Source: Sphagnum magellanicum
Taxonomy: Eukaryota > Streptophyta > Sphagnopsida > Sphagnales > Sphagnaceae
Reading direction: 5' to 3'
Length of the DNA stretch: 64,000 nt
Assembly: GCA_021904315.1 (NCBI GenBank)
Contig: CM038918.1
Location: 19,219,303-19,283,302, forward strand
Numbering within the stretch: the first letter of the stretch is position 1; each line of letters begins with the position of its first letter. This document shows positions 8,655-55,396 of this stretch, piece after piece. Made by a program: the position numbers and the translations under genes. Under the pieces are notes generated by a model. The model was not told the DNA's origin and ran no database searches. It was given only the letters and a program-made list of their open reading frames with translations.

Positions 8655-9690
8655 GCCCCTTATGAACGATCCAGCACGAGATTTACTAGAAAGCTCAAAC
8701 TGCTTTGTTAGCTCTGGACAGCAGATGCTGCTGAAACATTGATTTTCCAACCAATTTTCTGTGTTGTCCGTCTTAGCAGTTCTGCAGGACAAAAAGAAAC
8801 CTTGCTTCAATCTTGTTTGCATGAGTAATCCAAAACCACGCATCTCCAAGTATTGAATTTGTTTTTTGAAAGATTTTAAAAACATCCTGAAAGAGGAGGA
8901 AAGCCTATCATTTACTCGAATGGAAAGATGAGGTATCAGCAAACTCACCAGAGTCATCTCCAATGATGTTCAACAACAGTGGACAGCAGAAGGCAGCCAG
9001 TATCAAAACAGAATTCAGCTGTCAAGGAAAACAGGTACAATGAGATCCACAAGCGCTCATTTGCAGCAACCCTAGATACCAACTCACTGTCAATGTGCAA
9101 ATCATCCTCTGAGACCTATTTCTGTGACATTGAGAAAAGCAATATTGACAAGTTTAACCTGTCCTTCCTGATGAGGTATGTATGAAATTGCAGGCAAATC
9201 TCCACAACCTTTGAAAATTACATGAGAATGAGTGCAGTCATGTAATCTTATAGACACTGCACAATAAGTGTCGTACTTCCCACCTGATTCATTTTGTACT
9301 GTGGTAGCATAATGCTGGTTATGGAGAGGCACAAAGTGGAGGATAGCAAGTAGTGAATTGGAAAAAGAAAAGCTATTACAACATGAAAACTCTGAAACCT
9401 TTGGGAACATGATAGAATCAAACTTTGCAGCAACCACTAAATGTGGAACTCTTAATGATGGAGAAGTTCAAATGATGTAGAACCAAGCTACTTCGTACAA
9501 GACCAACTAACACACAGCACCTTTGATGTACTTGCTCATGAATACACCTCCTGTCTTTAAGTGCAACTACGCTAGCACACGCATTCAGTACACCCAAGTA
9601 ATTGACGGGGTCTGGCTGCACACCTTCTTGATGCATTTGTTGAAAGAGTTCCAATGCCTTTTGTGCTGGACAGATTTTTTTATTTAAAAT
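8655..9690. repeat. Tandem segmental duplication, copy 1
   Basis: This block is repeated about 2.8 kb downstream. Matching anchors include 'GGACAGCAGATGCTGCTGAA' at about 8713 versus a one-base variant at 11507, 'CATTTACTCGAATGGAAAGA' at about 8910 versus 11694, 'AGGTACAATGAGATCCACAAG' (first 20 bases compared) at about 9031 versus 11816, and 'GTCTGGCTGCACACCTTCTTG' at about 9610 versus 12377. The copies differ by many substitutions and small indels, so the duplication is not recent. Each copy ends with a minus-strand PPR fragment. Confidence 0.75.
9520..9690 (-). pseudogene. PPR protein fragment, copy 1
   Basis: Read on the minus strand, this stretch encodes QKALELFQQMHQEGVQPDP followed by LGVLNACASVVAL and RCIHEQV, the hallmark wording of PLS-class pentatricopeptide repeat proteins, which bind organellar RNA one base per repeat. 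Only about one and a half repeats are present; outside them the frame dissolves. Full PPR proteins have ten or more repeats, so this is a fragment. It sits at the same relative place in both copies of the tandem duplication, so it was fragmentary before the duplication or decayed in parallel. Confidence 0.65.
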
Positions 9691-11444: not shown

Positions 11445-12545
11445 ATCAACATCAAATGATCCAGGACAAGATTAGTAGAAAGCCCAAACAGCAGCTTGTT
11501 ATCTCTGGACAGCGGATGCTGCTGAAACAACGATTTTCCCAGTCACTTTCTATATTCTCCATATTAGCAGTTCTGCAAGACAAAAGGAACCTTGCTTCAA
11601 ATCTGGTTGCACATGAATAATCCAAACTAACCGTCTCTGATTAATGGCTATTTCTTTTGACAAGAATATCCTGAAAGAGCAGGAAGCCTATTCATTTACT
11701 CGAATGGAAAGAACATGTATCAGCAGACTCACCAGGGTCGTCTCTGGTGATGTTCAACAACAGTGCACAGCAGAAGGCATTCAGTATCGAAACAGCATGC
11801 AGCTGTCAAGGAACCAGGTACAATGAGATCCACAAGTGGTCACTTGCACGAACGCTAAACCCTAGATACGAACGCAGTGTGCAGATCATCCTTGGAGACC
11901 TATTTCCGTGACATTCAGGAAATGAATATTGACATGTTAAGTCCATGCTCATGATGTATGCATGAAATCGGAGACAAATCTCCATGACATTATTATGAAG
12001 ATAACATGAGAATAGCCCTATGGATGTTGCTGAAAATTTGTCAATCTCCCACTTGATTCATTCGGTATTGTGGCAGCATAGTGTTGGTTATGGAGTGGTC
12101 TGAAGAGGAGGACAGCAACTAGAGAATTGGTAAACAGAAACCTTACAACATGTAAATTCTGCAGCCTCCACAAACAGAAAAAGAATCAAACTTCAGAGCA
12201 CCCACATAAAGTGTGGAACATCTAATGGACAAGAAGTTAAATGTTGATGATCAAGCTCTTACATACAAAAACATCTAACTCACAGTGACTCTGATGAAAC
12301 TGCTCCTGAAGCCACGTCACATCTTGAAGTGCAACTATGCCATGGCACATGCATTCAGCACACCAGAGTGGCAGGGTCTGGCTGCACACCTTCTTGTTGA
12401 AATAGTTTCAATACCTTTTGCCCTTGACCAGATTTCAGAAATATAACATTCCAAGAAACCATAACTCAAGATGGAAGCTTGGTGAAAACTCTTACAGCAT
12501 CTCCAAATGCTCTTACACTTTGCATACATGTCAACCAAGCTAAGA
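11445..12545. repeat. Tandem segmental duplication, copy 2
   Basis: Second copy of the block described at 8655-9690, in the same orientation and about 2.8 kb away. The offset drifts from about 2790 to 2770 bases along the block because of small indels. It again ends in a minus-strand PPR fragment. Confidence 0.75.
12330..12545 (-). pseudogene. PPR protein fragment, copy 2
   Basis: The minus strand begins with LVDMYAKCKSIW, a typical PPR segment, then after a frame change reads DAVRVFTKLPS, an in-frame TGA, VMVSWNVIFLKSGQGQKVL, KLFQQ and EGVQPDPATLV, then in the first frame again LNACAMA. This is the usual order of an S/L/P repeat series, broken by at least two frame changes and one stop. An AG acceptor (TTCTTAG) lies just before the first residues, at about 12542. 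Homology to the fragment at 9520-9690 covers its later half. Confidence 0.65.
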
Positions 12546-20206: not shown

Positions 20207-21085
20207 TCAAACATTAAAGAAATCCAAGAAATACAAGGGGGGCAAGAAGCACCACACGATGGTGACGCATTCAACCCCAAAGATGCCTAAGTGGCACCAT
20301 TCCGCCTTAAAGGCTTGATCAATCCTATCTTGAATACTAGGGTCCCGGGAGGACCGAAGGGAATTAATGGCCTTCCAAGTGGCCATTCCAACCTCAACGG
20401 TAGCAACCCAGGCTTGTTGAAGGATTTTCCTAGAGGAATACTGGTTATCAAAATGCTTCCGGCATCTCTCCGTCCAAAGAAAGTAGAGGATAAAACTGCG
20501 AAAGATGTCAAGCGGTTGTCTGATGTAGGAGAAGCCTCCTACATGGTACCCTTGGACTCCGTGAGGGTCATCTTCTCTTTCGAAGACAGCTTCACCAAGC
20601 AAGACGAAAGGCCAGGAAAAAAAGATGTCATTGGGCGCTCCCCATTTTTGCCATATGTGATAGAAGGCCTCCCAAGCCCGTTTGGCGAAGGGACACTCGA
20701 GGAGACAATGTTGAGGGGATTCAAGGGCCTCCTCAGTGCAAACCTTGCACGTGGGGAGGATCCCCATGCATTGTAGCCATGTGCCAACTGGGAGACCGTG
20801 GTTTAAAGTGAGCCATATGCGAGTGCCGACCTTCCGCGGTAGGGCGTTATGCCAGATTCTAGCAATAACTTGCGTGACGGTGGAGTTTTGCAGGTTTAAC
20901 CTTTGAATGAAGGAGCAGATGTTGGCGCTCTGGGTGGGTTTCCTTGCATTTCGGTATCCCCGCTTTACAGAATAGCCGAAGAAAGGAGAGTCACCCATTT
21001 GTGAGGAGGCCTGCCAATGCCACTCTCCCCGGTCCTAGGGAAGCCCATCAATGAAACCAGATTCGAAAATCCAGAGTAGCATGTT
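20207..21085 (-). mobile_element. LINE 3' fragment: zinc-binding RT C-terminal domain
   Basis: The minus-strand open frame 20998-20207 (263 codons) matches the C-terminal zf-RVT region of plant L1-type LINE ORF2: RIWHNALPRKVGTRIWL, then GILPTCKVCTEEALESPQHC and LLECPFAKRAW, giving the CxxC..HxxxxC zinc-binding pattern, then a Trp-rich tail ending FLDFFNV. The catalytic reverse transcriptase and endonuclease are absent; the element is 5'-truncated near 21085, the usual outcome of incomplete target-primed reverse transcription. The frame is undamaged over its length, so the insertion may be fairly young. No poly-A (poly-T on this strand) or target-site duplication was identified. Confidence 0.75.
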
Positions 21086-32140: not shown

Positions 32141-33601
32141 GAAAATAGGCTCAATGATGATCAACGCAACGCATACAAAACTATTTTGAATGTCATGATA
32201 AACAAAGAGGGCAAACTGTTCTTTGTGTATGGCAGTGGTGGAACCGGCAAAACATTTGTTTGGACAATGCTTCTATTTCCTTTACGAGGGCAAGGTGAAA
32301 TCGTGCTTATAGTTGCTTCATCAAATATTGCATCTTTGCTATTTTTGGGTGGCAGAATCGCCCATTCAAGATTCAAGATTCCAATTGATCTACACGATGA
32401 GTCGACTTGCAACATCACACAACAAATGAAAGTGGCCAAGTTGGTGCATAAAATTGATATGATCATTTGGGATGAAGCATCGATGATGCATTGTCGAACT
32501 TTCGAAACTATTAATCGGACCCTGCGTGATTTGATGCAATTGGATGACGCACATGCAACCGAAAAGATCTTTGGTGGGAAAATCGTGGTCCTTGGTGGGG
32601 ATTTTTGACAGATCCTACCTATTGTTCCCAAGGGAGGACGAGAAAACATTATTAGTGCTTCGTTGCCTCGATTGCATCTTTGGCAGCATGTTACGATTTT
32701 TCGTCTTCATATCAACATGCGAGTCATGGTAGCCAATTTTGAAGAGCAGCGAGAGTTTGCCAAATGGGTGTTGAATGTTGGAGACGGCAGTTTTCCTGCC
32801 ATTGCAGAAGAAAAAGGTGTCAATCCAGGTTGGATCAAGATTTCGTCCCATATGAGGTTGCCAGCAGAAGATTACGACTTAAAAGAATTAATCCAAACCA
32901 TTTATCTGAATCACCAGCGCCACTTTGGAGATGCCATGTATCTTATGCAACGCAACATTCTGGCCCCCAAAAATACTAACGTTGATGAAGTCAACAATGT
33001 AATTCTAGAATCGTTATTTGAAGAATTGCACACGTACTTGAACGCAAATTCTTTGACTCCGACAAAAGAAGGTGCAAGTGCTGTTGTAGGAGTTTCAATG
33101 GATTCATTGTATCCGGTGGAATTTCTGAACACTTTGCAATTCAGCGGTATCACAAATCATAAGCTGGAATTCAAAGTGGGCATGCCAATCCTTTTGTTGC
33201 ACAATCTCAATCAATCAATAGGATTGTGCAATGCTACGAGGTTGATTGTCAAGAGATTGGGTTAGCATATCATTGAAGCGGAGATTAGCACAAGGAACAA
33301 TGTCGACAAATGTGTGTTCATACCCCCCATCCTCATGTCCCCCTCTAGGACTAATTGGCCATTTGTTTTGCGTCGTCCTCAATTTCCTGTTGGAATGACA
33401 TTTGCGATCACAATCAATAAGAATCAAGGTCAGACATTGAACAACATTGGGATATATTTGTCGTCTCCAGTCTATTCCCATGGTCAGTTGTATGTTGCTA
33501 TCTCACGGGTCACAAGCAGTGCAAACATCAAGATTTTCAGTGGCAAGGGTCCCGATGGATACATGCAGAATGATGTATATAAAGAGGTTTTGGAAATGTA
33601 G
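32141..33601 (+). pseudogene. Pif1-like helicase, Helitron type, with premature stops
   Basis: The frame reads RLNDDQRNAY, then the Walker A loop GSGGTGKTFVW, Walker B MIIWDEASMM, motif III VLGGDF..QILPIVPKGGR, a motif IV INMR, later the motif V block [15 protein letters not shown] and motif [15 protein letters not shown], ending KEVLEM. This is the superfamily 1B 5'-3' helicase of Pif1/Helitron RepHel proteins, which unwind DNA during rolling-circle transposition. A TGA at 32606-32608 interrupts motif III and a TAG near 33262 follows RLIVKRLG; no frameshift was needed between them. The frame is closed upstream by a TAA at 32138, and no Rep (HUH) domain was found, so only the C-terminal part of the element remains. 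With Rep and RPA domains missing, a host PIF1 relic is the alternative; the motif wording is closer to the Helitron group. Confidence 0.75.
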
Positions 33602-33720: not shown

Positions 33721-34440
33721 TCAAACTTGTGACATGAAAATATGCTTAAAGATGTCACATCTGAATTCTAAGAAACCTTTTAACGTTTCTGACAACGCCC
33801 TCAGACACATCCCTAATCTTCGATACCTTATTTGTTGGCTCTGACCCCTTATGTTTCTTTGACTTTCTTTCCCCTTCTGCACCTCATCAGCCAGGTCCAC
33901 ACCATCTACTGGTCCTGGAGCTCTTGTCTTTACCCCCTTCTCCTTTGACTCCCTTCTGGTCACAACTGCTTTGTCCATTGTGAACCCTTTTGTCTTGGAT
34001 TTCCCACCAGACTTACTACATTTAGTCCTTTTCACTATCTCCTATGCGTCAAGATCATTGACATTTTCCACCTTATCATCAACCTTTAGATTCACCTGGG
34101 TCTTTTCTACACTCACATGCTGCTGAGTCTCAATAGGGTTTACATGGTCGTTTGGCTCCTGGCCACTTTGAATGTTTTTTCCATGTTCCATGAAGGTCTA
34201 TTCAGCACCAATTGATCTTTTCCCATGGAGAGACTTCAGGTTTCCATCTGTCACTAAGGTGAAGGCGCTTATAGGACTAACAATTTCATGAGGTTCATGG
34301 TGATCACCTGAAGTTGGGACCACCACAGCAGCTTCACCCTTTAGCTTTCCATTCCCTTCTTGCAACACATCCCCCCTTGTGCTAACCAGAGGAGCTTTCC
34401 TCCTAGCCCAGTCAGTAGCCGTCACTAATACGTGTCAAAA
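33721..34440 (-). pseudogene. Lys/Ser-rich coding relic, possibly LINE ORF1
   Basis: Two minus-strand frames, 34425-34198 and 34035-33721, are linked by readable sequence with stops. The predicted protein is rich in Lys, Gly, Asp and Thr with little hydrophobic core, ending in a Cys/Phe-containing tail, which resembles the variable C-terminal part of plant LINE ORF1. No zinc knuckle or DUF4283 block was seen, so the assignment is weak. Its first part (34440-34264) is shared with the flank of germin-like copy C at 55225-55396, its second part is not. Confidence 0.3.
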
Positions 34441-35240
34441 TTGTGTAGGCTGATCTTTTTTGCCATGACCCCCTCTGAATTTTCCAAGATCATTATACTT
34501 CACATTAGTAATTGATACCAACAAAATCAGTCCTTAACATGGACTTTCTTAATACAAAATACACCCTATACCATACCAAAGATTGGACACTCAAGCAAAC
34601 CAAGACCCACTGGTTAATCTCGAACTAACCCCTCGCTCTAGTTTTTTGAAAATAAAAATGGGAACCCAAAATTCCAGGTCTGACCTTAAAAATTTCCGAT
34701 GAACCGCTTCTGGTTCCAAAACTGTGGGTCCAAAAATCAAACCCCATTCCAGTTTGGTTTAAACTTTATACGGAAGTCTAGAACTGGAACCTTCAAATCT
34801 AACTAACCAAATCAGGTAACCGCTGACCATTGGTACAAACCAAGTAAGTCTTCTTTGGGCACTGGTATGGAATTTAAAATGCTTTTCTACATGAAAGTAC
34901 ATTCAAATTTGACATAAATTCTAATATTTGAAATTACAACAATTAAGATTATAACGATGTACATGTAAGGCAAAACCAAATTCAAATAATTTTATGATTG
35001 CTTGAACAAATTACATGATCAGTCCATTGGATATGATTCATCATCATGATCTAAAACGAAAAATTCCAAAATTCTTGACTATGTAAATAAATTAAACCTG
35101 TTGCTCAAGACTTGCAAGGTTGGTGTTGCACAAATCTGTAAGGTCGCCCAGGCAACAAGATTGAAGGACTAGTAGAGAGTAAAGCCAGCCGACTCTTTCA
35201 TTCACAGCTTGGAAGTAGACTCTAGTGCATAAATACCAAG

Positions 35241-36178
35241 TCACACGGAAGGAAGAGAGGCTTGGAGATATTTGAGCGCTGTGGCATTTATTCCCAGGGA
35301 CGTCTCCAGCACTGCATCGGGGATGTTGCTCCCCAGCAACTGATTTGCTACAAATAATAACCCAGGATCCTGCGAAGTCAGAGCGTTCAAGGAAGCGGCA
35401 TGTCCAGTACCTACGTTGATTTGGAAATGGATAGTGCCTTTCGGAAAGACGTACATGTCTCCCACTTGCAGGGTTTCTGCGTACAGCACACCTTCGTAGC
35501 TCACAAATCCCGTGAAAATGGTGCCTTCCAGCACGTACAATGTCTCCGAAGCCAAAGGATGGGTATGGGGGGGAATAACTCCCCCGGGACCGAAATCCAG
35601 TCGGGCGTGGGAGATGCCGAGTGTGTTGAGAGCTGGGTACAAGAACACAGTTGCAAATGTTGCGGAGGCCTTTATACCGGTGGTATAGCCAGTCGCTGTT
35701 CAATACATCACCGAATGGCCCAATTCAGCAAGATATGAGACAAGAGTGTTAAATTTTCAGTCGTGTTAGAATGCGATGGGTACATCATCAGCTGGACTAG
35801 CATATAAGAAAAGCAATCATCTGTGACGTGCTGGCGAATTATATAAACATGTTTGAAAGCTTTTTATATGTCGAATTGCGAATTACCAGCTGTACGGAGG
35901 CCCGTGAAGAGGAAGTCTTTGGAAGTAACATTTGCGCTGGGCTTGCAAGGAAAGCCATTGACTTTTACAGGATTGGTGGGGGACAGATCTGCCACGCAGA
36001 AATCCTGCAATTGATCTGGATCCGAGGCTTGCACCATGGTCGACGTCATTGCAGCCATGATGACTAGTAGTGCTAGCGCAGTGCACGCGAACACATGATG
36101 CACGAGATTTGCACCCCACGGTGAGCTCCAAGCCTGGCCGCTACAGGAGCGTGGATGATCAGTACTGTAATTCTTCAT
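35241..36178 (-). CDS. Germin-like protein, copy A
   Basis: Two exons, 36178-35887 and 35695-35241, flank a 191-bp GT-AG intron and encode 248 residues. Residues about 28-51 form a hydrophobic signal segment (FACTALALLVIM) after an unusually long polar N-terminus; secretion to the cell wall is expected for the family. Cys61 and Cys78 are the conserved disulfide pair. Germin box 1 is PPHTHPLASE (His141, His143, Glu148) and box 2 is GDMYVFPKGTIHF (His187), so all four metal ligands of the cupin barrel are present. N-glycosylation sites NVT (83) and NAT (234). Germin-like proteins bind manganese and form stable hexamers; some have superoxide dismutase or oxalate oxidase activity, which cannot be read from sequence alone. 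A TATA box lies about 265 bases upstream. It differs from copy B by Pro instead of Leu at residue 20. The gene is divergently paired with copy B. Confidence 0.92.
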
Positions 36179-36442
36179 GGCTGCAGCTTACAGTGAAAGC
36201 TCAGTGACTTATCGAAATCAGCTGGAACTCTAGATCTAGTGCAGCTGGGTTGGCAAACCTGAAGAGAGTACGTAAGGTTATGTAACTGAGTGTATGAACT
36301 AGCACAAGCTGGAGCTCCTGGATAATTCCCTGCGTGAGATGTGGGAAAGTGCTCAGTTTATCCCTGTCAGAAGTCCCCTCTTATAACTACACTGAATACT
36401 ATGCCGGTGGTGTTTGATGTTATCTGACAATTCAGCATCCGT

Positions 36443-36450
36443 TTTATATA
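36443..36450 (-). promoter_or_regulatory. TATA box of germin-like copy A
   Basis: TATATAAA on the minus strand, 265 bases before the ATG, implying a leader of roughly 230 bases. It is the exact mirror of the copy B box. Confidence 0.6.
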
Positions 36451-36627
36451 CAATACTGCACACAAACTAAGCACACGCGTAATTATGTAACCAGAATGAA
36501 ATTTCTCAACCTTCAATGTCAAGATGATGTGAAGTGTGATTGACTGTTGAAACAGGACTGTGCAGGTTCCGGGATATGGTGGGTACAGGTTCGGGGATAT
36601 TGTGTTGGGTGATTCTGGCGCCAGGAT

Positions 36628-36886
36628 CGCATTCATCGTCACGCATTGGAATTTAGAACGCACATGTTCATGAGTAGGGCCAGTGTGTTTTTGTCTTCAA
36701 ATCTGCAGTGTAGTAGGGCCAGGGCGAATTGACTCCGAGAATAGAACTTTCATGCGAGCCAATGTGAAGGCCCAGCATCGCATTCATCGTCACGCATTGG
36801 AATTTAGAACGCACATGTTCATGAGTAGGGCCAGTGTGTTTTTGTCTTCAAATCTGCAGTGTAGTAGGGCCAGGGCGAATTGACTC
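36628..36886 (-). repeat. 151-bp repeat units upstream of copy A (1.7 units)
   Basis: One whole unit (36628-36778) and about 108 bases of a second (36779-36886) continue without a gap from the promoter. The match stops inside the unit at GAGTCAATTCGCCC; beyond is unique spacer. Confidence 0.85.
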
Positions 36887-37230
36887 TTAGATTGGGATCA
36901 AGGTGAAAACCGTAAAAACCCATTTAACCCCCAAAACTGGCCAAAAATATGTGGTTTTTGGGTTTTGTGTAGCCAGATTTTCAACAAAATCTAAATTTGT
37001 TTCCTGAAAATAGCCAGATGTATGTATTGGGTTCTAGTATGTAGCCAAAAACGCGAAAGATCCGTAAATATTTTGACGTTCATATGCAGTTTGTAGCCAG
37101 ATTTCTGGCTAAAGTGTTCTACTGATGATGGCAACTTCAGCTACATAACAAAATAGAGAAAAAAAGGGTTGATTGTGACTGGATGCAACCTCGCAACCTA
37201 AATCTGATCGAAAAAAGAACTTACGGCGAA
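36887..37230. other. Unique spacer at the centre of the palindrome
   Basis: This 344-bp AT-rich stretch is not mirrored. It contains repeated AGCCAGAT or TAGCCA motifs, including a short palindrome GTAGCCAGATTTCTGGCTA near 37093, related to the dispersed palindrome at 18083. No gene seen. Confidence 0.6.
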
Positions 37231-37834
37231 ATGCTGAGCCTTCACATTGGCTCGCATGAAAGTTCTATTCTCGGAGTCAATTCGCCCTGGCCCTACTACA
37301 CTGCAGATTTGAAGACAAAAACACACTGGCCCTACTCATGAACATGTGCGTTCTAAATTCTAATGCGTGACGATGAATGCGATGCTGAGCCTTCACATTG
37401 GCTCGCATGAAAGTTCTATTCTCGGAGTCAATTCGCCCTGGCCCTACTACACTGCAGATTTGAAGACAAAAACACACTGGCCCTACTCATGAACATGTGC
37501 GTTCTAAATTCCAATGCGTGACGATGAATGCGATGCTGAGCCTTCACATTGGCTCCCATGAAAGTTCTATTCTCGGAGTCAATTCGCCCTGGCCCTACTA
37601 CACTGCAGATTTGAAGACAAAAACACACTGGCCCTACTCATGAACATGTGCGTTCTAAATTCCAATGCGTGACGATGAATGCGATGCTGGGCCTTCACAT
37701 TGGCTCGCATGAAAGTTCTATTCTCGGAGTCAATTCGCCCTGGCCCTACTACACTGCAGATTTGAAGACAAAAACACACTGGCCCTACTCATGAACATGT
37801 GCGTTCTAAATTCCAATGCGTGACGATGAATGCG
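37231..37834 (+). repeat. Array of four 151-bp units upstream of copy B
   Basis: Units start at 37231, 37382, 37533 and 37684, each exactly 151 bases, beginning ATGCTGAGCCTTCAC and ending GACGATGAATGCG. Differences between units are single substitutions (for example ATTCTAATG in unit 1, CTCCCATG in unit 3, CTGGGCC in unit 4). Each unit contains GAATTTAGAACGCACATG on the opposite strand and an open frame through all three phases that is only a by-product of repetition. Confidence 0.95.
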
Positions 37835-38011
37835 ATCCTGGCGCCAGAATCACCCAACACAATATCCCCGAACCTGTACCCACCATATCCCGGAACCTGC
37901 ACAGTCCTGTTTCAACAGTCAATCACACTTCACATCATCTTGACATTGAAGGTTGAGAAATTTCATTCTGGTTACATAATTACGCGTGTGCTTAGTTTGT
38001 GTGCAGTATTG

Positions 38012-38019
38012 TATATAAA
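38012..38019 (+). promoter_or_regulatory. TATA box of germin-like copy B
   Basis: TATATAAA, 265 bases before the ATG. Copy C lacks it because of a 5-bp deletion. Confidence 0.6.
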
Positions 38020-38283
38020 ACGGATGCTGAATTGTCAGATAACATCAAACACCACCGGCATAGTATTCAGTGTAGTTATAAGAGGGGACTTCTGACAGGG
38101 ATAAACTGAGCACTTTCCCACATCTCACGCAGGGAATTATCCAGGAGCTCCAGCTTGTGCTAGTTCATACACTCAGTTACATAACCTTACGTACTCTCTT
38201 CAGGTTTGCCAACCCAGCTGCACTAGATCTAGAGTTCCAGCTGATTTCGATAAGTCACTGAGCTTTCACTGTAAGCTGCAGCC

Positions 38284-39221
38284 ATGAAGAATTACAGTAC
38301 TGATCATCCACGCTCCTGTAGCGGCCAGGCTTGGAGCTCACTGTGGGGTGCAAATCTCGTGCATCATGTGTTCGCGTGCACTGCGCTAGCACTACTAGTC
38401 ATCATGGCTGCAATGACGTCGACCATGGTGCAAGCCTCGGATCCAGATCAATTGCAGGATTTCTGCGTGGCAGATCTGTCCCCCACCAATCCTGTAAAAG
38501 TCAATGGCTTTCCTTGCAAGCCCAGCGCAAATGTTACTTCCAAAGACTTCCTCTTCACGGGCCTCCGTACAGCTGGTAATTCGCAATTCGACATATAAAA
38601 AGCTTTCAAACATGTTTATATAATTCGCCAGCACGTCACAGATGATTGCTTTTCTTATATGCTAGTCCAGCTGATGATGTACCCATCGCATTCTAACACG
38701 ACTGAAAATTTAACACTCTTGTCTCATATCTTGCTGAATTGGGCCATTCGGTGATGTATTGAACAGCGACTGGCTATACCACCGGTATAAAGGCCTCCGC
38801 AACATTTGCAACTGTGTTCTTGTACCCAGCTCTCAACACACTCGGCATCTCCCACGCCCGACTGGATTTCGGTCCCGGGGGAGTTATTCCCCCCCATACC
38901 CATCCTTTGGCTTCGGAGACATTGTACGTGCTGGAAGGCACCATTTTCACGGGATTTGTGAGCTACGAAGGTGTGCTGTACGCAGAAACCCTGCAAGTGG
39001 GAGACATGTACGTCTTTCCGAAAGGCACTATCCATTTCCAAATCAACGTAGGTACTGGACATGCCGCTTCCTTGAACGCTCTGACTTCGCAGGATCCTGG
39101 GTTATTATTTGTAGCAAATCAGTTGCTGGGGAGCAACATCCCCGATGCAGTGCTGGAGACGTCCCTGGGAATAAATGCCACAGCGCTCAAATATCTCCAA
39201 GCCTCTCTTCCTTCCGTGTGA
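38284..39221 (+). CDS. Germin-like protein, copy B
   Basis: Exons 38284-38575 and 38767-39221, the split codon (Ala98) spanning a 191-bp GT-AG intron, give 248 residues. Domain content is as in copy A: signal segment, Cys61/Cys78, box 1 HTHPLASE, box 2 with His187, and a C-terminal helix pair ending YLQASLPSV. Usual family length is 210-225 residues; the extra length is all in the polar N-terminus before the hydrophobic segment, so a shorter protein from a downstream start would lose the signal peptide, and the first ATG is preferred. It faces away from copy A, and the two share a 2.1-kb intergenic region that includes the 151-bp array, so expression may be coordinated. No disabling change seen. 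Confidence 0.92.
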
Positions 39222-39629
39222 CTTGGTATTTATGCACTAGAGTCTACTTCCAAGCTGTGAATGAAAGAGTCGGCTGGCTTTACTCTCTACTAGTCCTTCA
39301 ATCTTGTTGCCTGGGCGACCTTACAGATTTGTGCAACACCAACCTTGCAAGTCTTGAGCAACAGGTTTAATTTATTTACATAGTCAAGAATTTTGGAATT
39401 TTTCGTTTTAGATCATGATGATGAATCATATCCAATGGACTGATCATGTAATTTGTTCAAGCAATCATAAAATTATTTGAATTTGGTTTTGCCTTACATG
39501 TACATCGTTATAATCTTAATTGTTGTAATTTCAAATATTAGAATTTATGTCAAATTTGAATGTACTTTCATGTAGAAAAGCATTTTAAATTCCATACCAG
39601 TGCCCAAAGAAGACTTACTTGGTTTGTAT

Positions 39630-41200
39630 CCGTTTGTTGGGTTAGAATTGAACGTTTGAGTTCGAAATTTTAGTATAAAGTTTAAACCAAACTGGAATCG
39701 GATTTGATTTTTGGACCCACAGTTTTGGAACCAGAAGCGGTTCATTGGAATTTTATAAGAGCCAGTGTACCTGGAATTTTGGGTTCCCATTTTTACTTCC
39801 TTGTGGAATCAGAACTAGAACCGGACAAGTAGGTTGTTTAAAGGAAAAATTTTTGAAAAAAAGAAAACTAGAGCCACCTAGGTCAGTTGGACGTTAACCA
39901 GTTGTACAAATAACCACTGGTTCTGATCTAGGTTACTCAAATTTACCCACAATCAAACCAAAACTAGGTTTGATTTTCAAAACCAGAATCAAAATTTAGT
40001 TAAAATTTCCAGATTCCAAATGATTCCATATAGAATTCATGGAACCAAAATTTTCAAAATCGAAACTTTTAAAATTTTAATTTTTCAAAATCAAAACTAG
40101 AGGTTCATCATAAAAGTAAAGAACCACACAATATTGGTTTGTACTTAGTCACATTTTGCTTGAAAGTATTTAGTAAATTTAACTAGAAGGAAAATTGCAT
40201 TTGGGCTCATTCAAGGTTGGGGTTCCAAATTTAGGAACGTCTAGAATTAAAAAGAATCTACAACGAATAATTATAATAGATTTTATTAATGTTTAATATG
40301 TTTTAACTATGATGTACTGTTGTGCTCCCATAATTGGAATATTGAGAAAACAAGCTTTTAAAAAAATTAATAATTATTGGATGTTGTACACATAATTTAA
40401 GTCCTTGAAAGGACACTAAATTGAGACCTTGACTGAGTTATGATGATTTGTCCGTATTACCATTTTTAATGCAAAGTTCTTGGATTGCATAAAATGATTC
40501 GCAATTGGTTTTTAAACATTCCATACCAGGAAAACATACATTTCCCGTTATACAGCTACACGTTCGTTAGGTCAATATTTGAACGAAAAAAAATCGTATG
40601 AAAATGTTGCTTGTTTGTTGTTGGCTATAGAGCTGCAGCAGCTGTGATCATATAGCCTTACGCAATTTGATTTTGCATGCGCGTCATTCAAGGAGTTTTG
40701 ATTCTCGGTGCATACAAAAATTTGTAGAAGTAGATTGTAAAATTCGTTTGTTTATTTGTTTGTTTTTCTTTTTTGGGTTTGTTTTGTTCCATTGTCAAAA
40801 AATATTTTGCAAATGTGCCTTGTTTCATGCATGATTCTCCTGTGGGATTTCCGATCATACTTTCGCTTACTGATTGATGGAATGACAATCTCTGAGCTGA
40901 ATTGGGTGGTGCCATCTGGGTTCCAGTGTTTGAGATTGTTTTGTGTATTTGCTCACATGGGTGAAGAATCAGTGGTTTTACAAAACAGGATTTGGAGGAA
41001 GATTTGTGTTTTTCCAGTAGTTTTTTCTGACTATCCTCGCTGCGCGTACATTTTCATCATCACAACCTGCGGTCGCGCATCATCTACAAAATTTATTCCT
41101 TGATCAAGTTCACCAGCTGCTTCACCCATTTGTGCTAAAGCTCCTGAGAAGCCAAGAACATGCAAAGTTGGCCGCACTCGACAAGTACACCAGCTGTAGG
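39630..41200. other. Diverged 3' flank of copy B and intergenic DNA
   Basis: From 39630 to about 40140 the sequence is rich in AACC, GGTTC and AAAACC words and is distantly related to the 3' flanks of copies A and C. From 40140 to 41200 nothing is recognised. Confidence 0.45.
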
Positions 41201-41228
41201 ATGTAAGCAACTACTGAGCTGCACGTTG

Positions 41229-42460
41229 ATGGATGCATGTGTTTCGGGCAAGCTGCCAGAGATGGAATTGGAGCTGATATTTGCTCGATTACCACTGAAG
41301 GATATTGTGCGTCTGCAAGCCCTGAATACCCATTGGAAGTTGCTTATCCGCAGCTCTTTTTTCCAACAACACATGGAACAAGCTATTTCTCAGGGAGGTG
41401 CAAGGTTTGGACTCCTCACCCAAGTGATCAAAGGACCTCGTTCCCTTTGTTGGGATTTCCACATCTTCGATGCTCCAGCTTGTGAATGGAATCACTTCCC
41501 ACTCTCAGGACCAACAGACACAATCTCAACAGGCATTTTCCCCATTGCAGCAGCTGGAGGATTGGTATGCATGAGTAACGTGTACGGGGAGCGAATCTTT
41601 GTGGTGAATCCTGTCACCATTGTTTGCAGAAAACTCCCACAAGATCACATCTCTGGCAACATGAGTGGTTGGACCAAGTGCCAGTTCCTGGCCATGGCTT
41701 TGATGCAAGTCATCATTGACAATCATCGTCAGCAGCAGCAGAAAACAAGAAGGCAAGGTTACAGTCTTACAATTGTGCTAAGTCAGCAGCCATGGCCAGA
41801 AGGCTCCAACTTGAGTTCACTTCTCTGTGAGAAACTGGTGAATGTGTCCCATTTCAGTTTTTCTGTTTATGATTCAGCAGCCGATCGCTGGAGCAAAAGA
41901 GACACCCTGAATGATCCTAACCTACTGAGGAACAAGGTCTTCAGACTCTTTCCTAGTGGAGCAGCTGTAATGGCATCCACTGATGCTCTGGGGAATCAAG
42001 TGTGTCATCTCATTCCAAGGTCACTTGATGTCGTATCAAAACCTGATTGCATGGAAGCTGCTTCAAATGACTCAAATTATGGGGCACTTGCTTATGGTGT
42101 CAGATTGAACTGGTTCCCACGATCGGTGGGATGTATACAAGCTCCAAAGTGCGGGTAAGCTGGATCAGTGGAAGAAGGTAGCTTCTGTCCCAGCTCAATC
42201 CACCTCTCAGTTTTTGTGGGATTGTAAGTGTTTCATGGTCTGTAATGACAAACAGCTGGTCCTTGTGAAATGTCATGCTAACAAACAAGTTGTCAGTTTC
42301 CATGTGTGATTTGACCACATGTACTTGGCAAGACTTGCCTTCAATATTCCCCTCATATGTGGGGACTGGTAGTGATTTGAAGACCAATGAAATTAACATG
42401 GCGTGCCTGGCTGGATGCACATTTGAGATCAAGTTTGAGCAGTCCCGTAAACACGTTTAG
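41229..42460 (+). pseudogene. F-box/kelch-type protein gene with two frame changes
   Basis: The start ATG at 41229 opens MDACVSGKLPEMELELIFAR, then LPLKDIVRLQALNTHWKLLI, a clear F-box (about residues 8-45), the module that ties substrate receptors to Skp1 in SCF ubiquitin ligases. The following FHIFDAPACEWNHFPL, FPIAAAGGLVCMSNV and VVNPVT blocks are the plant F-box-associated/kelch pattern. The frame runs on to 42158, but homologous sequence changes frame near 42120: DRWDVYKLQSAGKLDQWKKV is in the next phase, and near 42300 the phase changes again to CDLTTCTWQDLPSIFPSYVG, ending at the TAG at 42460. Two single-base changes thus separate three readable parts. Either it is a young pseudogene or the assembly has two base errors; no introns fit these junctions. 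An in-frame ATG at 41160 lies upstream but adds nothing F-box-like. Confidence 0.75.
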
Positions 42461-47044: not shown

Positions 47045-50000
47045 ATGAACTCAATGGTTGTTGGAGGGTGTAGAAGTGCAAATGTTGTGCATTCAAAAGG
47101 AAGATACCAAGAACCAATTGCTGTAATTGCACCAATTCTTGATCACAGAGATGGCCATTATGTTAGGCCAAATAGAGTAGTTCTTAAGTATCTTGATTTC
47201 AAAAAAGATGTTGATCTAGATGCTCATGTCAAAGTGTTCAATTCTGTGGTAAAAGAAAATGTAAAGACTTTTCAAGAATATATCATCAATGCATTTAGCT
47301 ATACACTAAGAGATACAACATCAAACAAGTGCCATAATTACATGTCAAAATTTCCTAACTACATTTTTTTGGAGCTTACCCAAGTATTTTGCAAACATCA
47401 TCGAAAGATTCAAAATGATGAACAAATATACATGGAGCTGAAGAACATGAAGTAGGAGGAAACTAAGAGGGTGGAGGTTTATTGTGAGTGGATTCAAAAG
47501 TTGGCTCATGGTTTATAAGTACCAACCATAGACAATTTTCTAATTATTGTGTTTAGAACGGGTTTGTAATCATATGTTAGAATTGTGACGATAAGGATGA
47601 AACGGTCAACATTACAACAACATAAAAAGGTGGCAATGTTGGGTGAAAAAGGTATGACTACCATAAAAGCAAAGAGTGCACTATTAGTACCATAGAGTAT
47701 CAAATAGGCAATACTAACAAAAAAAAAAAAGTAATACATGAAAGACTAACAAACATTGCACAAATTATGGGATGATAAATCACAATGTGGAGACATGTAG
47801 AAAGAAAAAAAAGTAAACCATAGTGGCAACCACAGAGGTGGCACAACCAAGTCAAAAAGTATAAAAGACATCATATGCATGTCACATCTATGGTTTAAAT
47901 GGCCATAAAATGATAGATTGTCCAAAGTTTGCTAAGATGCATAAAATGTTTCATGGGAAATATGTGATAGTAGCAGAGGTTCAACCTATTGTTAAGACAC
48001 AAACAATCATTGCAGATGTGAATGTGATGGATGTTAATGCTACCACAAGAAATAAAGTAACTGAAAAATAAATGTTCAAGGATAGAGAGCCAAGAAAAGC
48101 AAAAAGTGTTGTTGATAGGGAAAAAGAAGAGTAGTTGAAGAAGTCTATGGTGGAGACAATTCAATAGATTTAGAAAACACAAACCTAGATCAAAAGGCCA
48201 TTCACATCCATGAAGGGATGGAACACAACCTAGCTGGGTATGCCAAATACTATTCTTGTGGATGCACAAAAATCTTAGGAAGTAATGAATTAATAAAAAA
48301 AACTGATTACAGTAAAAGAGATTTTTCTGGACATTGGTAAGCAAATGTTAGAAAAAAGTTATATTTTGAATTTATGATAATTACTTATAATAGCTCTTGA
48401 ACTAAAAAAATTATCTTTGGCAGAAGTTGGAACCAGAGAAAATTCAAAATGTAAGTAAAGTAACCACAAATAAACAAGTTGGTTATTTAGTACCAAAAAT
48501 AGGGACAATTGTTTTAACAATAGATAATCATATGGTAGTTATCCAAATACAGATTGGGAAGAATATAATAGAAGATGTGTTTATGGATGAAGGTTCTGGA
48601 GTTAATATTATCACAAAACAGATGAGATTGAGGTTGGGGCTTTTAAAGCCTAAACCTGCACCATATAATCTAAAGATGACAGATCGAACAACCACAAAAC
48701 CAGTGGGGTTAATCAAAGATCTAAAGATATATGTTCATGGCATTCCTTACAATACTTCAAAATAATGTGGTAGATACTAGTTATTCCATGTTGTTGGGGA
48801 GACCATGGTTGAAGGATGCTAAAGTGGCACATGATTAGGGTAGTAACATTATTACCATACAAGGGAATGGGACAATCCAAACAATTTTGGTTAGCAAAAC
48901 ATTTGGGAAGTGAAATAAGAAGACCAGAAGTGTTACTATGCTATGATATCAGAATGGCATCACAAATGAAGAAGAAGATATCATCTTTGCTAGAGAACCA
49001 GAATTGTTCTCCATAGGAATAATCAATTTACCTGCGACAATTCAATCTATGAAAACCATAGATGTGGGGATCATGGATACGGATGTGAAGACTAGTATTT
49101 CAAAATAGGAATTTGAAGTACAAAACAGAGAAAAGAAGATATCTTGCAATAGATATGAGCCAAAAGTAGCTTTGGAGGATAAGGTGTATCTAGAAACATA
49201 CTATAGACATTAACCAAGGAGTGTTATAATGGATGAAACTCTAGTAAACATCAAAGCATAGGGATTGCAGATAGTTGGATGGACATTAATTGAAGATCAA
49301 TAATTGATGAAGCTTAATCTGGAAATTGTTACAAAACCACAGATGGTGAAAATTAATGCATAATTGGAAAACAAGTAAGGTGCTAGAAGTGGAGCAGCTG
49401 TTGAAGGAATTCAAAGATGTTTTTGCATGGACATATAAAAATATGAAAAGGATTCCACCAAAGTTAGCACAACACAAAATTAAGTTGCATTAATATATTG
49501 TTGACACATCAAACCAGGTATAAATTAAATCCAAACTATGTTACAAAAGTCAAACAAGATATAAATAAATTGTTAACAGTTGGATTCATTGAATATATAA
49601 AAGAAGCTACATGGTTGTCACCCATAGTAGTAGTACCCAAAAAAAATGGCAAGTCAAAAATCTATATAGATTTCAAAATATTAAATGTAACCACAAAGAA
49701 ATATCCATACCCATTACCTTTCATGGGTGAAGTGCTGAACACAGTAGTAAAGTATGAGGCATATTCCTTCTTAGATGGATATTCAGGATATCATCAAATA
49801 TCTATAGCTCCAGAGGACAGATACAAGAATGCATTTGTTGCATATTAGGGGGCTTTCATATGGAAGGTGATGTTGTTTGGAATTAAAAATGGACCTCCAA
49901 CATATCAAAGAGTATTTGGACAATTTTATGAAGATATTTTTGGATGACTATACAGTTTATAATTACATGGAGAATCATTTGTAGAAGCTTAGATTATGAT

Positions 50001-51565: not shown

Positions 51566-52887
51566 ATTGGCCAAAATGTAATCATTATATTTGCAACTAC
51601 ATGCAATTATTAATTATTTGCAACTAGATTTGGACATTTTTGCAACTATTTATTGTGTTGGTCATATTTGTGATTATAATGCAACTGGTTTACAACTATT
51701 TCAGTGTTCATCCTTCCATGTGAACAACATTTAGTTTAATTTTCATCCAAGAAAAACAATTTATGTCCCATTAGTTGCAAATGTGACCAATTTATTTGTA
51801 ACCTTATGATTGTACAAAGGTGTATTTTGTGAATTCTAAGGAATATAATTCGGTGTATTAAAATTTATAAATGTATATTTTGAATTTATATGAACAACCA
51901 TATTAAATGTCTATTCAAGTATTATTATTAACATAAATGGCCTTAATATTATGGTTACATTAATAAGTGTATATTTTGAATATATTAACATTTTATATAA
52001 GATATTGGCTAAATATATGATGCCCATATTAAAAGTTTCTCCAAACCATCTTATTATATTTCTTGAATTTACTACAAATGACATTTATTATTATTTTTAT
52101 TAATATTATATTATATATTTATAGTAATTACATGTAATAGAAAACTTAATATATTAATATATTGTTATTAAATTCTTTTCAAATGACTAATGTACTTATT
52201 AAGAATTCATTTTTATTTATTAAAAAATAAAAATGAATTAAAATAAATCATAATAGCTCTAACAAGTTACATAATAATATATAATAATAATAATAAAATA
52301 ACTAACCTATGCTAACTACAAATTACAATATTATTATTATTATAAGTAATCAATTATAAAATTTTATTAAATTAATATAATAATTACTAACAAATATTAA
52401 TATATAGTTCTAAGTTTTTATATTAAAAATTTATAAGTGATATTTAGTAATTATTAATAATTCAATGATTATAGTAAATGAATGATATCTAGTTTCGGGG
52501 TACTTATTTTTGTTTCTGTTCATTAGTGGAAAGGTGCACCCACAGTTTTTTTGCCCCTGAAGGAGCCATTTGATTGGCCCATCACCAATATGTTTGACAC
52601 ATGGGGAACTTTACAACATAGAAACGTGAATATACTTCCCTCCTCAAAATAAAAACATGCTTTGTCATGCTTCCTTTGCCCTCTGTCATCCCCTAACTCC
52701 TTTACAATCTATATACAGATGTTGGTTGAGCGATGGCTGAACAATACGGGTTGAAAAATGAGAAGCTAGATGTCCTAAGAAAGAAATTGGGAGCTTGGGA
52801 ACACATTAAGAAGAAAGAAAAAATGAAAAATCCCACTCTACCCCATTCCCAAACCCAAAAGAAACAAAAACTTGCTCCCCAGACTGC
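51566..52887. other. AT-rich desert between the gypsy relic and germin-like copy C
   Basis: No gene. 51580-51700 holds five GCAACT words. 51800-52490 is extremely AT-rich with ATAATAATA runs. The last 350 bases are unrelated to the sequence left of the copy B array. Confidence 0.55.
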
Positions 52888-53204
52888 ATGCTGAGCCTTC
52901 ACATTGGCTCGCATGAAAGTTCTATTCTCGGAGTCAATTCGCCCTGGCCCTACTACACTGCAGATTTGAAGACAAAAACACACTGGCCCTACTCATGAAC
53001 ATGTGCGTTCTAAATTCCAATGCGTGACGATGAATGCGATCCTGGCGCCAGAATCACCCAACACAATATCCCCGAACCTGTACCCACCATATCCCGGAAC
53101 CTGCACAGTCCTGTTTCAACAGTCAATCACACTTCACATCACCTTGACCTTGAACGTTGAGAAATTTCATTCTGGTTACATAATTACGCGTGTGCTTAGT
53201 TTGT

Positions 53205-53222
53205 GTGCAGTATCTAAAACGG
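53205..53222 (+). promoter_or_regulatory. Promoter of copy C with TATA box deleted
   Basis: Copies A and B read CAGTATTGTATATAAAACGG here; copy C reads CAGTATCTAAAACGG. The 5-base loss removes TATATAAA and leaves no close substitute within the next 60 bases. Confidence 0.6.
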
Positions 53223-53482
53223 ATGCTGAATTGTCAGATAACATCAAACACCACCGGCATAGTATTCAGTGTAGTTATAAGAGGGGACTTCTGACAGGGA
53301 TAAACTGAGCACTTTCCCACATCTCACGCAGGGAATTATCCAGGAGCTCCAGCTTGTGCTAGCTCATACACTCAGTTACATAACCTTACGTACTCTCTTC
53401 AGGTTTGCCGACCCAGCTGCACTAGATCTAGGGTTCCAACTGATTTCGATAAGTCACTGAGCTTTCACTGTAAGCTGCAGCC

Positions 53483-54420
53483 ATGAAGAATTACAGTACT
53501 GATCATCCACGCTCCTGTAGCGGCCAGGCTTGGAGCTCACTGTGGGGTGCAAATCTCGTGCATCATGTGTTCGCGTGCACTGCGCTAGCACTACTAGTCA
53601 TCATGGCTGCAATGACGTCGACCATGGTGCAAGCCTCGGATCCAGATCAATTGCAGGATTTCTGCGTGGCAGATCTGTCCCCCACCAATCCTGTAAAAGT
53701 CAATGGCTTTCCTTGCAAGCGCAGCGCAAATGTTACTTCCAAAGACTTCCTCTTCACGGGCCTCCGTACAGCTGGTAATTCGCAATTCGACATATAAAAA
53801 GCTTTCAAACATGTTTATATAATTCGCCAGCACGTCACAGATGATTGCTTTTCTTATATGCTAGTCCAGCTGATGATGTACCCATCGCATTCTAACACGA
53901 CTGAAAATTTAACACTCTTGTCTCATATCTTGCTGAATTGGGCCATTCGGTGATGTATTGAACAGCGACTGTCTATACCACCGGTATAAAGGCCTCCGCA
54001 ACATTTGCAACTGTGTTCGAGTACCCAGCTCTCAACACACTCGGCATCTCCCACGCCCGACTGGATTTCGGTCCCGGGGGAGTTATTCCTCCCCATACCC
54101 ATCCTTTGGCTTCGGAGACATTGTACGTGCTGGAAGGCACCATTTTCACGGGATTTGTGAGCTACGAAGGTGTGCTGTACGCAGAAACCCTGCAAGTGGG
54201 AGACATGTACGTCTTTCCGAAAGGCACTATCCATTTCCAAATCAACGTAGGTACTGGACATGCCGCTTCCTTGAACGCTCTGACTTCGCAGGATCCTGGG
54301 TTATTATTTGTAGCAAATCAGTTGCTGGGGAGCAACATCCCCGATGCAGTGCTGGAGACGTCCCTGGGAATAAATGCCACAGCGCTCAAATATCTCCAAG
54401 CCTCTCTTCCTTCCGTGTGA
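53483..54420 (+). CDS. Germin-like protein, copy C
   Basis: Exons 53483-53774 and 53966-54420 with the same 191-bp intron encode a 248-residue germin-like protein. All metal ligands (His141, His143, Glu148, His187) and Cys61/Cys78 are kept. Relative to copy B it has Arg for Pro at 80, Val for Gly at 100 and Glu for Leu at 116, the last from two adjacent base changes just before the PALNTLGIS block. Reading frame and splice sites are undamaged, so the protein would still be made if transcribed, but the TATA box is gone. It is most likely a weakened or silent paralogue; a TATA-independent start cannot be excluded. Confidence 0.9.
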
Positions 54421-55224
54421 CTTGGTATTTATGTACTAGAGTCTACTTCCAAGCTGTGAATGAAAGAGTCGGCTGGCTTTACTCTCTACTAGTCCTTCAA
54501 TCTTGTTGCCTGGGCGACCTTACAGATTTGTGCAACACCAACCTTGCAAGTCTTGAGCAACAGGTTTAATTTATTTATATAGTCAAGAATTTTGGAATTT
54601 TTCGTTTTAGATCATGATGATGAATCATATCCAATGGACTGATCATGTAATTTGTTCAAGCAATCATAAAATTATTTGAATTTGGTTTTGCCTTACATGT
54701 ACATCTTTATAATCTTAATTGTTGTAATTTCAAATATTAGAATTTATGTCAAATTTGAATGTACTTTCATGTAGAAAAGCATTTTAAATTCCATACCAGT
54801 GCCCAAAGAAGACTTACTTGGTTTGTACCAATGGTCAGCGGTTACCTGATTTGGTTAGTTAGATTTGAAGGTTCCAGTTCTAGACTTCCGTATAAAGTTT
54901 AAACCAAACTGGAATGGGGTTTGATTTTTGGACCCACAGTTTTGGAACCAGAAGCGGTTCATCGGAAATTTTTAAGGTCAGACCTGGAATTTTGGGTTCC
55001 CATTTTTATTTTCAAAAAACTAGAGCCAGGCGTTAGTTCGAGATTAACCAGTGGGTCTTGGTTTGCTTGAGTGTCCAATCTTTGGTATGGTATAGGGTGT
55101 ATTTTGTATTAAGAAAGTCCATGTTAAGGACTGATTTTGTTGGTATCAATTACTAATGTGAAGTATAATGATCTTGGAAAATTCAGAGGGGGTCATGGCA
55201 AAAAAGATCAGCCTACACAATTTT

Positions 55225-55396
55225 GACACGTATTAGTGACGGCTACTGACTGGGCTAGGAGGAAAGTCCTCTGGTTAGCACAAGGGGGGATGTGTTGCAA
55301 GAAGGGAATGGAAAGCTAAAGGGTGAAGCTGCTGTGGTGGTCCCAACTTCAGGTGATCACCATGAACCTCATGAAATTGTTGGTCCTTTAAGCGCC
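55225..55396 (+). pseudogene. Part of the LINE ORF1-like relic carried by copy C
   Basis: This segment is the counterpart of 34440-34264 and carries the same Lys/Gly-rich coding relic, cut off at 55396 where the copy A match ends. It shows the duplication breakpoint falls inside that relic. Confidence 0.5.

What the first reader, a model, noticed from the sequence alone, without database searches (positions are those of the whole stretch)
34835..39627. Head-to-head germin-like gene palindrome with about 2-kb arms and almost no divergence
Genes A and B mirror each other with a constant coordinate sum (74462) for starts, splice sites, stops and flanking frames, so no indel separates them over about 2 kb; one amino-acid difference (residue 20) was seen. 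Large near-perfect inverted repeats are unstable unless young or kept alike by gene conversion. The two promoters face away from a shared intergenic region, a setting in which co-regulation or antisense read-through into double-stranded RNA is possible. The unique 344-bp spacer and unequal repeat counts argue against a simple chimeric-read artefact.
Basis: partly seen in the sequence, partly recalled or inferred. Interest (0 to 1): 0.75.

Follow-up and report, generated by a model that had tools for sequence, protein, structure and literature searches.

The report
Young inverted pair of germin-like genes
Two nearly identical copies of a plant germin-like gene sit back to back, and a third, slightly older copy lies nearby, so this looks like an ordinary recently copied gene cluster rather than a new kind of genetic device.

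Summary
Arms 34834-36886 (A) and 37576-39628 (B) mirror each other over 2053 bp with one substitution and no indel. Each holds an open two-exon, 248-residue germin-like gene. A and C match along 2.5 kb, 3' flank included (19/1941 differences inside, 4/568 in the flank). B equals A inside but differs at once beyond 39628 (25/166). B and C share the start of a 151-bp upstream repeat that A lacks. A's outer edge abuts an 8-bp word that recurs 13 bp past its inner edge, which suggests that A is an inserted, truncated, inverted copy. So this is a young three-copy cluster in which A and B shared one very recent copying step. Either A was copied from B, whose flank then changed, or A and B were homogenised by gene conversion; this sequence does not decide. 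The double-stranded-RNA idea is untested: the genes are read outward, so a transcript entering from outside would be needed. No genome, read, expression or small-RNA data were available. Near-identical neighbouring duplicates are familiar in plants. Interest is low to moderate.

The parts
34834..36886 (-). Arm A of the palindrome: germin-like gene, upstream region and about 1.7 copies of the 151-bp repeat
   Evidence: 1 mismatch in 2053 bp against B, no gaps
35241..36178 (-). Germin-like gene A: exon 1 36178-35887, intron 35886-35696, exon 2 35695-35241; 248 aa
   Evidence: Spliced frame open; its only protein difference from B is P20
37576..39628 (+). Arm B of the palindrome
38284..39221 (+). 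Germin-like gene B: exon 1 38284-38575, intron 38576-38766, exon 2 38767-39221; 248 aa
   Evidence: Spliced frame open; Cupin_1 E=3.9e-27 on exon 2; barley germin chain 2et7_A E=9.3e-40
52882..55396 (+). Third copy C of the unit, including the 3' flank shared with A; germin-like gene exon 1 53483-53774, exon 2 53966-54420; 248 aa
   Evidence: 98.8% to A over a 2522-column alignment; spliced frame open
36887..37230 (.). 344-bp stretch between A's array and B's array, unique in the window
37231..37840 (+). 151-bp tandem array upstream of gene B, four units; its first base corresponds to C's unit start at 52888
   Evidence: unit B2 equals C's unit, 0/151 differences
36628..36886 (-). 151-bp array upstream of gene A: one full unit (36778-36628) and a 108-bp partial unit (36886-36779)
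34264..34833 (-). 3' flank of A shared with C (4/568 differences, 1 gap column) but not with B
34256..34263 (.). AAGGTGAA abutting A's outer edge; the same word at 36900-36907, 13 bp past A's inner edge; possible target duplication with filler
   Evidence: at random window positions an abutting 8-mer recurs within the other 30 bp in about 0.1% of trials; six edge choices were looked at
39629..40133 (+). B's own 3' flank: its first 170 bases are 86% like the A/C flank; bracketed by TTGGTTTGTA at 39619 and 40134; possibly a repeat element
   Evidence: a 10-mer recurs within the next 600 bp at 1.6% of random window positions

Best explanation
A young, three-member cluster of germin-like (cupin) genes in a plant nuclear genome. 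A unit made of the 151-bp repeat, promoter region, two-exon gene and 3' flank was copied to give C and the ancestor of A/B (about 1% divergence). Much later a copy of B, still with a C-type 3' flank and cut short at its array end, was inserted upside down beside B; that copy is A. B's 3' flank was then replaced from 39629 on by a related sequence, and A gained one amino-acid change. The three genes would each be read from their own promoter copy as ordinary genes. Shown: the three-copy alignment, the divergence steps, the truncated array of A and the open frames. Inferred: the order of events, the insertion, the flank replacement, and that the genes are expressed.
For: A-B interior 1/2053, no gaps; A-C interior 19/1941 and flank 4/568, not different from each other (Fisher p = 0.80); A-B falls from 1/2053 to 25/166 at 34833/39628 (Fisher p = 3e-28) (all). 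Between 36779 and 34834, 18 substitution sites group A+B against C, 1 groups B+C against A, none A+C against B. B's array units lying wholly outside the A-B tract are young too (B1 1/151, B2 0/151 from C). B and C start at the same base of the repeat (37231, 52888), while A is truncated. The 8-bp word abutting A's outer edge recurs 13 bp past its inner edge. Protein: cupin with germin relatives.
Against: B's flank beyond 39628 is 86% similar to the A/C flank in register, so the flank replacement must have used a related sequence; no further copy of it was found in the 64-kb window. The 8-bp word was found after the fact, is not at the inner edge itself, and no such word of 8 or more brackets B or C.
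Confidence: 0.46

Rival explanations
1. Gene conversion: A (from a C-type source) and B were separate neighbouring units whose 3' flanks had diverged by about 14%; a recent conversion, A-type onto B, erased the differences over the gene and array and stopped at 39628, where the flanks carry indels.
For: Sharp fall in A-B identity next to in-register flank of 86% identity; a further homologous patch in the flank (score 33 against a shuffle maximum of 28, 0 of 200); TTGGTTTGTA borders B's flank element and its first 8 bases border the shorter one in A/C, as if one old insertion were shared; A-C divergence is even across interior and flank.
Against: The conversion would have to be complete: no A+C-against-B site in the interior and no old divergence in B's array units outside the A-B tract. 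Sequence beyond the flank element is not detectably homologous between B and C (51 of 200 shuffles score as high).
Confidence: 0.43
2. Assembly artefact: a mirrored read, or two haplotypes joined in inverted order.
For: Large near-perfect palindromes are a known place for assembly error (general knowledge); no reads were available here.
Against: Different outer flanks on both sides, a unique 344-bp spacer, unequal array lengths, and a base at 36120 private to A while B and C agree.
Confidence: 0.08
3. The unit is a gene carried by a transposon (for example a Helitron, since a PIF1-type helicase relic lies at 32141-33601).
For: Helicase pieces next to A; same 5' start of the unit in B and C; an 8-bp direct repeat near the edges of A.
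Against: Unit ends show no inverted repeat (2 to 7 of 20 bases match in four edge pairs); no shared word of 8 or more within 60 bp of the edges of B or C; no Helitron-type ends seen by eye (end motifs recalled); helicase pieces are not repeated beside B or C and their frame holds in-frame stops.
Confidence: 0.03

Closest known systems
Germin-like protein (GLP) gene family of plants
   Same: Cupin domain, germin box, similarity to barley germin; several copies close together (that GLP genes often cluster is recalled)
   Different: Two of three copies are mirror images with 1 difference in 2053 bp; 51 residues precede the part that aligns to mature barley germin
Soybean CHS inverted-repeat cluster (I locus) and soybean aquaporin inverted repeat (passages of PMC3534067)
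   Same: Inverted repeat made of gene copies; a possible source of small RNA
   Different: No small-RNA data here; arms hold complete genes read outward, no outside promoter shown
Palindromes with arm-to-arm gene conversion on sex chromosomes (PMC3403216, seen only as a search listing with the start of its abstract)
   Same: Near-identical inverted gene copies
   Different: 2-kb arms, sex linkage unknown, repeated conversion not shown

Membership tests
Germin-like proteins (cupin superfamily) | Cupin_1 domain above the curated cut-off | tested here: met
   PF00190, 95.1 bits against a cut-off of 22, E=3.9e-27, on exon 2 of gene B
Germin-like proteins (cupin superfamily) | Germin box GxxxxHxHPxAxEh (consensus as quoted in PMC3011853) | tested here: inconclusive
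   GVIPPHTHPLASET in the translations: all fixed letters match, but the last position is T, not clearly hydrophobic
Germin-like proteins (cupin superfamily) | Metal-site histidines and glutamate shared with barley germin | tested here: met
   HxH...E and the H of PKGTIHFQINVG align with barley germin; their metal role is recalled
Germin-like proteins (cupin superfamily) | Enzyme activity (oxalate oxidase or superoxide dismutase) | not testable with these tools
   Needs protein assay
Gene-conversion-maintained palindrome | Inverted arms more alike than the time since duplication allows | tested here: inconclusive
   Arms 1/2053 against flank 25/166, but the flank may be a replaced or repeat sequence and B's array outside the arms is young
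siRNA-producing inverted repeat | 21-24 nt RNAs from the arms | not testable with these tools
   No RNA data

The most novel reading that the evidence does not exclude
The A/B palindrome is kept near-identical by repeated arm-to-arm conversion, and transcription entering from outside (for example from the helicase side) yields small RNAs that act on all copies including C.
Probability: 0.05. Interest if true: 0.5.

Novelty: new member of a known kind. Interest (0 to 1): 0.24.

Why it matters
It is a small, clear case of three young gene copies whose edges let the order of copying be argued, and a candidate place to test whether natural inverted gene pairs make small RNAs. It does not by itself change any general view.

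Tried and rejected
Transposon-carried unit: four edge pairs checked for inverted ends (2 to 7 of 20 bases match) and six for shared words; only A has one, of 8 bp. Helitron-type ends were looked for by eye only, with recalled motifs. Spacer as relic of a further copy: no other match in the window; against C's upstream DNA it scores no better than shuffles (199 and 157 of 200 as high). Spacer against its own reverse complement: 8 of 200 shuffles as high, not followed. DNA beyond A against DNA beyond C: 2 of 200 shuffles as high, but the match is a 26-column stretch out of register, not used. DNA beyond A against DNA beyond B: 61 of 200. More germin-like copies in the window: tblastn finds A, B and C; two other hits have E = 1.3 and 4.6. 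B's 3' flank as a dispersed repeat: no further copy in the window, undecided. Whole genome: none is held.

Papers: five searches paired germin-like with inverted duplication (1 paper), gene conversion, fern (15 of 245 listed), bryophytes and head-to-head. No listed title or abstract start reports a germin-like palindrome; the bodies of these papers were not read, apart from one passage of PMC3011853 and passages of PMC3534067 (listed). Searches (12 of 50 listed; 10 of 50 listed) were background. Only open-access full text was searched.

Ages printed rest on recalled substitution rates and are not relied on. One of the 19 A-C interior differences (36779) is the edge column of the alignment. The A-C count leaves out 36780-36886, where C has no counterpart. 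The variable-site print skipped columns 520-560 and those from 2450 to the end of the interior; one search recounted all. Viral, metagenome and prokaryote collections were not searched for relatives, because a plant nuclear gene is not expected there.

Searches showed the 8-bp repeat at A, so A is now read as the inserted copy, and the odds moved from 0.52/0.38/0.08/0.02 to 0.46/0.43/0.08/0.03. That draft's distance of 265 bp for the TATA-like stretch is now 272.

Full report
Observation. The inverted pair is real in this sequence. With the sum of coordinates fixed at 74462, positions 34834-36886 and 37576-39628 differ at 1 of 2053 bases and no gap is needed. The difference (36120/38342) changes residue 20. 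The two genes point away from each other; start codons are at 36178 (-) and 38284 (+).

What the genes are. Each of A, B and C has two exons, a 191-bp GT-AG intron and 248 codons without a break. Exon 2 of B carries Cupin_1 (E=3.9e-27); exon 1 alone matched no family there. The whole protein matches barley germin/oxalate oxidase (best E=9.3e-40, residues 52-243). The residues before 52 include a hydrophobic stretch that I read as a signal peptide (inference). The germin box quoted in PMC3011853 (one passage seen) is matched except that its last, hydrophobic position is T.

The missed third copy. Self-comparison shows a third unit, C, at 52882-55396 on the + strand, with an open gene that differs from B at residues 80, 100 and 116; A differs from both at residue 20. 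Of 5 coding base differences between B and C, 4 change the protein; numbers are too small to judge selection. At residue 116 C has E, as barley germin does, so L in A and B is probably the newer state (inference).

History from the three copies. A against C: 19/1941 inside plus a 5-base gap, and 4/568 in the 3' flank plus one gap column; the rates do not differ (Fisher p=0.80). A against B: 1/2053 inside, then 25/166 with 22 gap columns in the next stretch (p=3e-28). Over 36779-34834, 18 substitution sites set A+B against C, 1 sets B+C against A, and none sets A+C against B. On the array side, B's first repeat starts at the same base as C's (37231 and 52888), and B's first three units differ from C's by 1, 0 and 1 of 151. 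A's array stops part-way through a unit. So C resembles the full unit, A lacks one end and B has a different other end: neither A nor B is a plain copy of the other as they now stand.

A as an insertion. The word AAGGTGAA abuts A's outer edge (34256-34263) and recurs at 36900-36907, 13 bp past A's inner edge. At random window positions an abutting 8-mer recurs within 30 bp of a second point in about 0.1% of trials; any shared 8-mer within 30 bp occurs in 1.3-1.6%. I looked at six edge choices and found nothing of 8 or more at B or C. This fits a truncated copy inserted with a short target duplication and some filler; it is suggestive, not proof.

Copying or conversion. B's flank next to 39628 is 86% similar to the A/C flank in register over 166 bp, with a further homologous patch (0 of 200 shuffles as high). 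TTGGTTTGTA ends the unit and recurs at 40134 in B; its first 8 bases recur at 55058 in C. Such recurrences happen at 1.6% (10-mer in 600 bp) and 3.1% (8-mer in 300 bp) of random positions, and I noticed them after the fact. If the flank is one old insertion shared by all copies, the interior of B was homogenised by conversion. If B's flank is a later replacement, A is a fresh copy of B. The lack of any old difference in B's gene and array favours the second slightly; the in-register flank favours the first. I give 0.46 to 0.43.

Function. The simplest reading is three ordinary germin-like genes with copied promoter regions. The 151-bp repeat differs in number (A 1.7, B 4, C 1). C lacks five bases (B 38011-38015) of a TATATAAAA stretch that B has 272 bp before its start codon and A shares; any effect on expression is unknown. 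Double-stranded RNA would need transcription from outside one arm. Natural examples of gene inverted repeats making small RNA are described for the soybean CHS cluster and an aquaporin repeat (passages of PMC3534067).

Limits. No whole genome, reads, RNA or relatives from other species were available. The species was not identified; 'plant' rests on the gene family and the intron. Nothing here shows expression.

Noticed in passing
32141-33601 (+): PIF1-type helicase relic in one frame with two in-frame stops, reading towards arm A; possibly a decayed Helitron.
   Followed up: partly
38011-38015 and 53214: C lacks five bases of a TATA-like stretch that A and B have upstream of the gene.
   Followed up: no
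34256-34263 and 36900-36907: 8-bp direct repeat AAGGTGAA near both edges of the A segment; possible target duplication.
   Followed up: partly
41160-42158 (+): Single-frame F-box protein of 332 aa beyond B (E=0.00027, just above the curated cut-off).
   Followed up: no
49468-49848 (+): Weak reverse transcriptase match (E=0.00014, below the curated cut-off).
   Followed up: no
20207-21034 (-): zf-RVT domain (E=5.4e-12), probably a retroelement remnant.
   Followed up: no
8665-9630 and 11455-12396: Direct repeat of about 1 kb at 76% identity.
   Followed up: no
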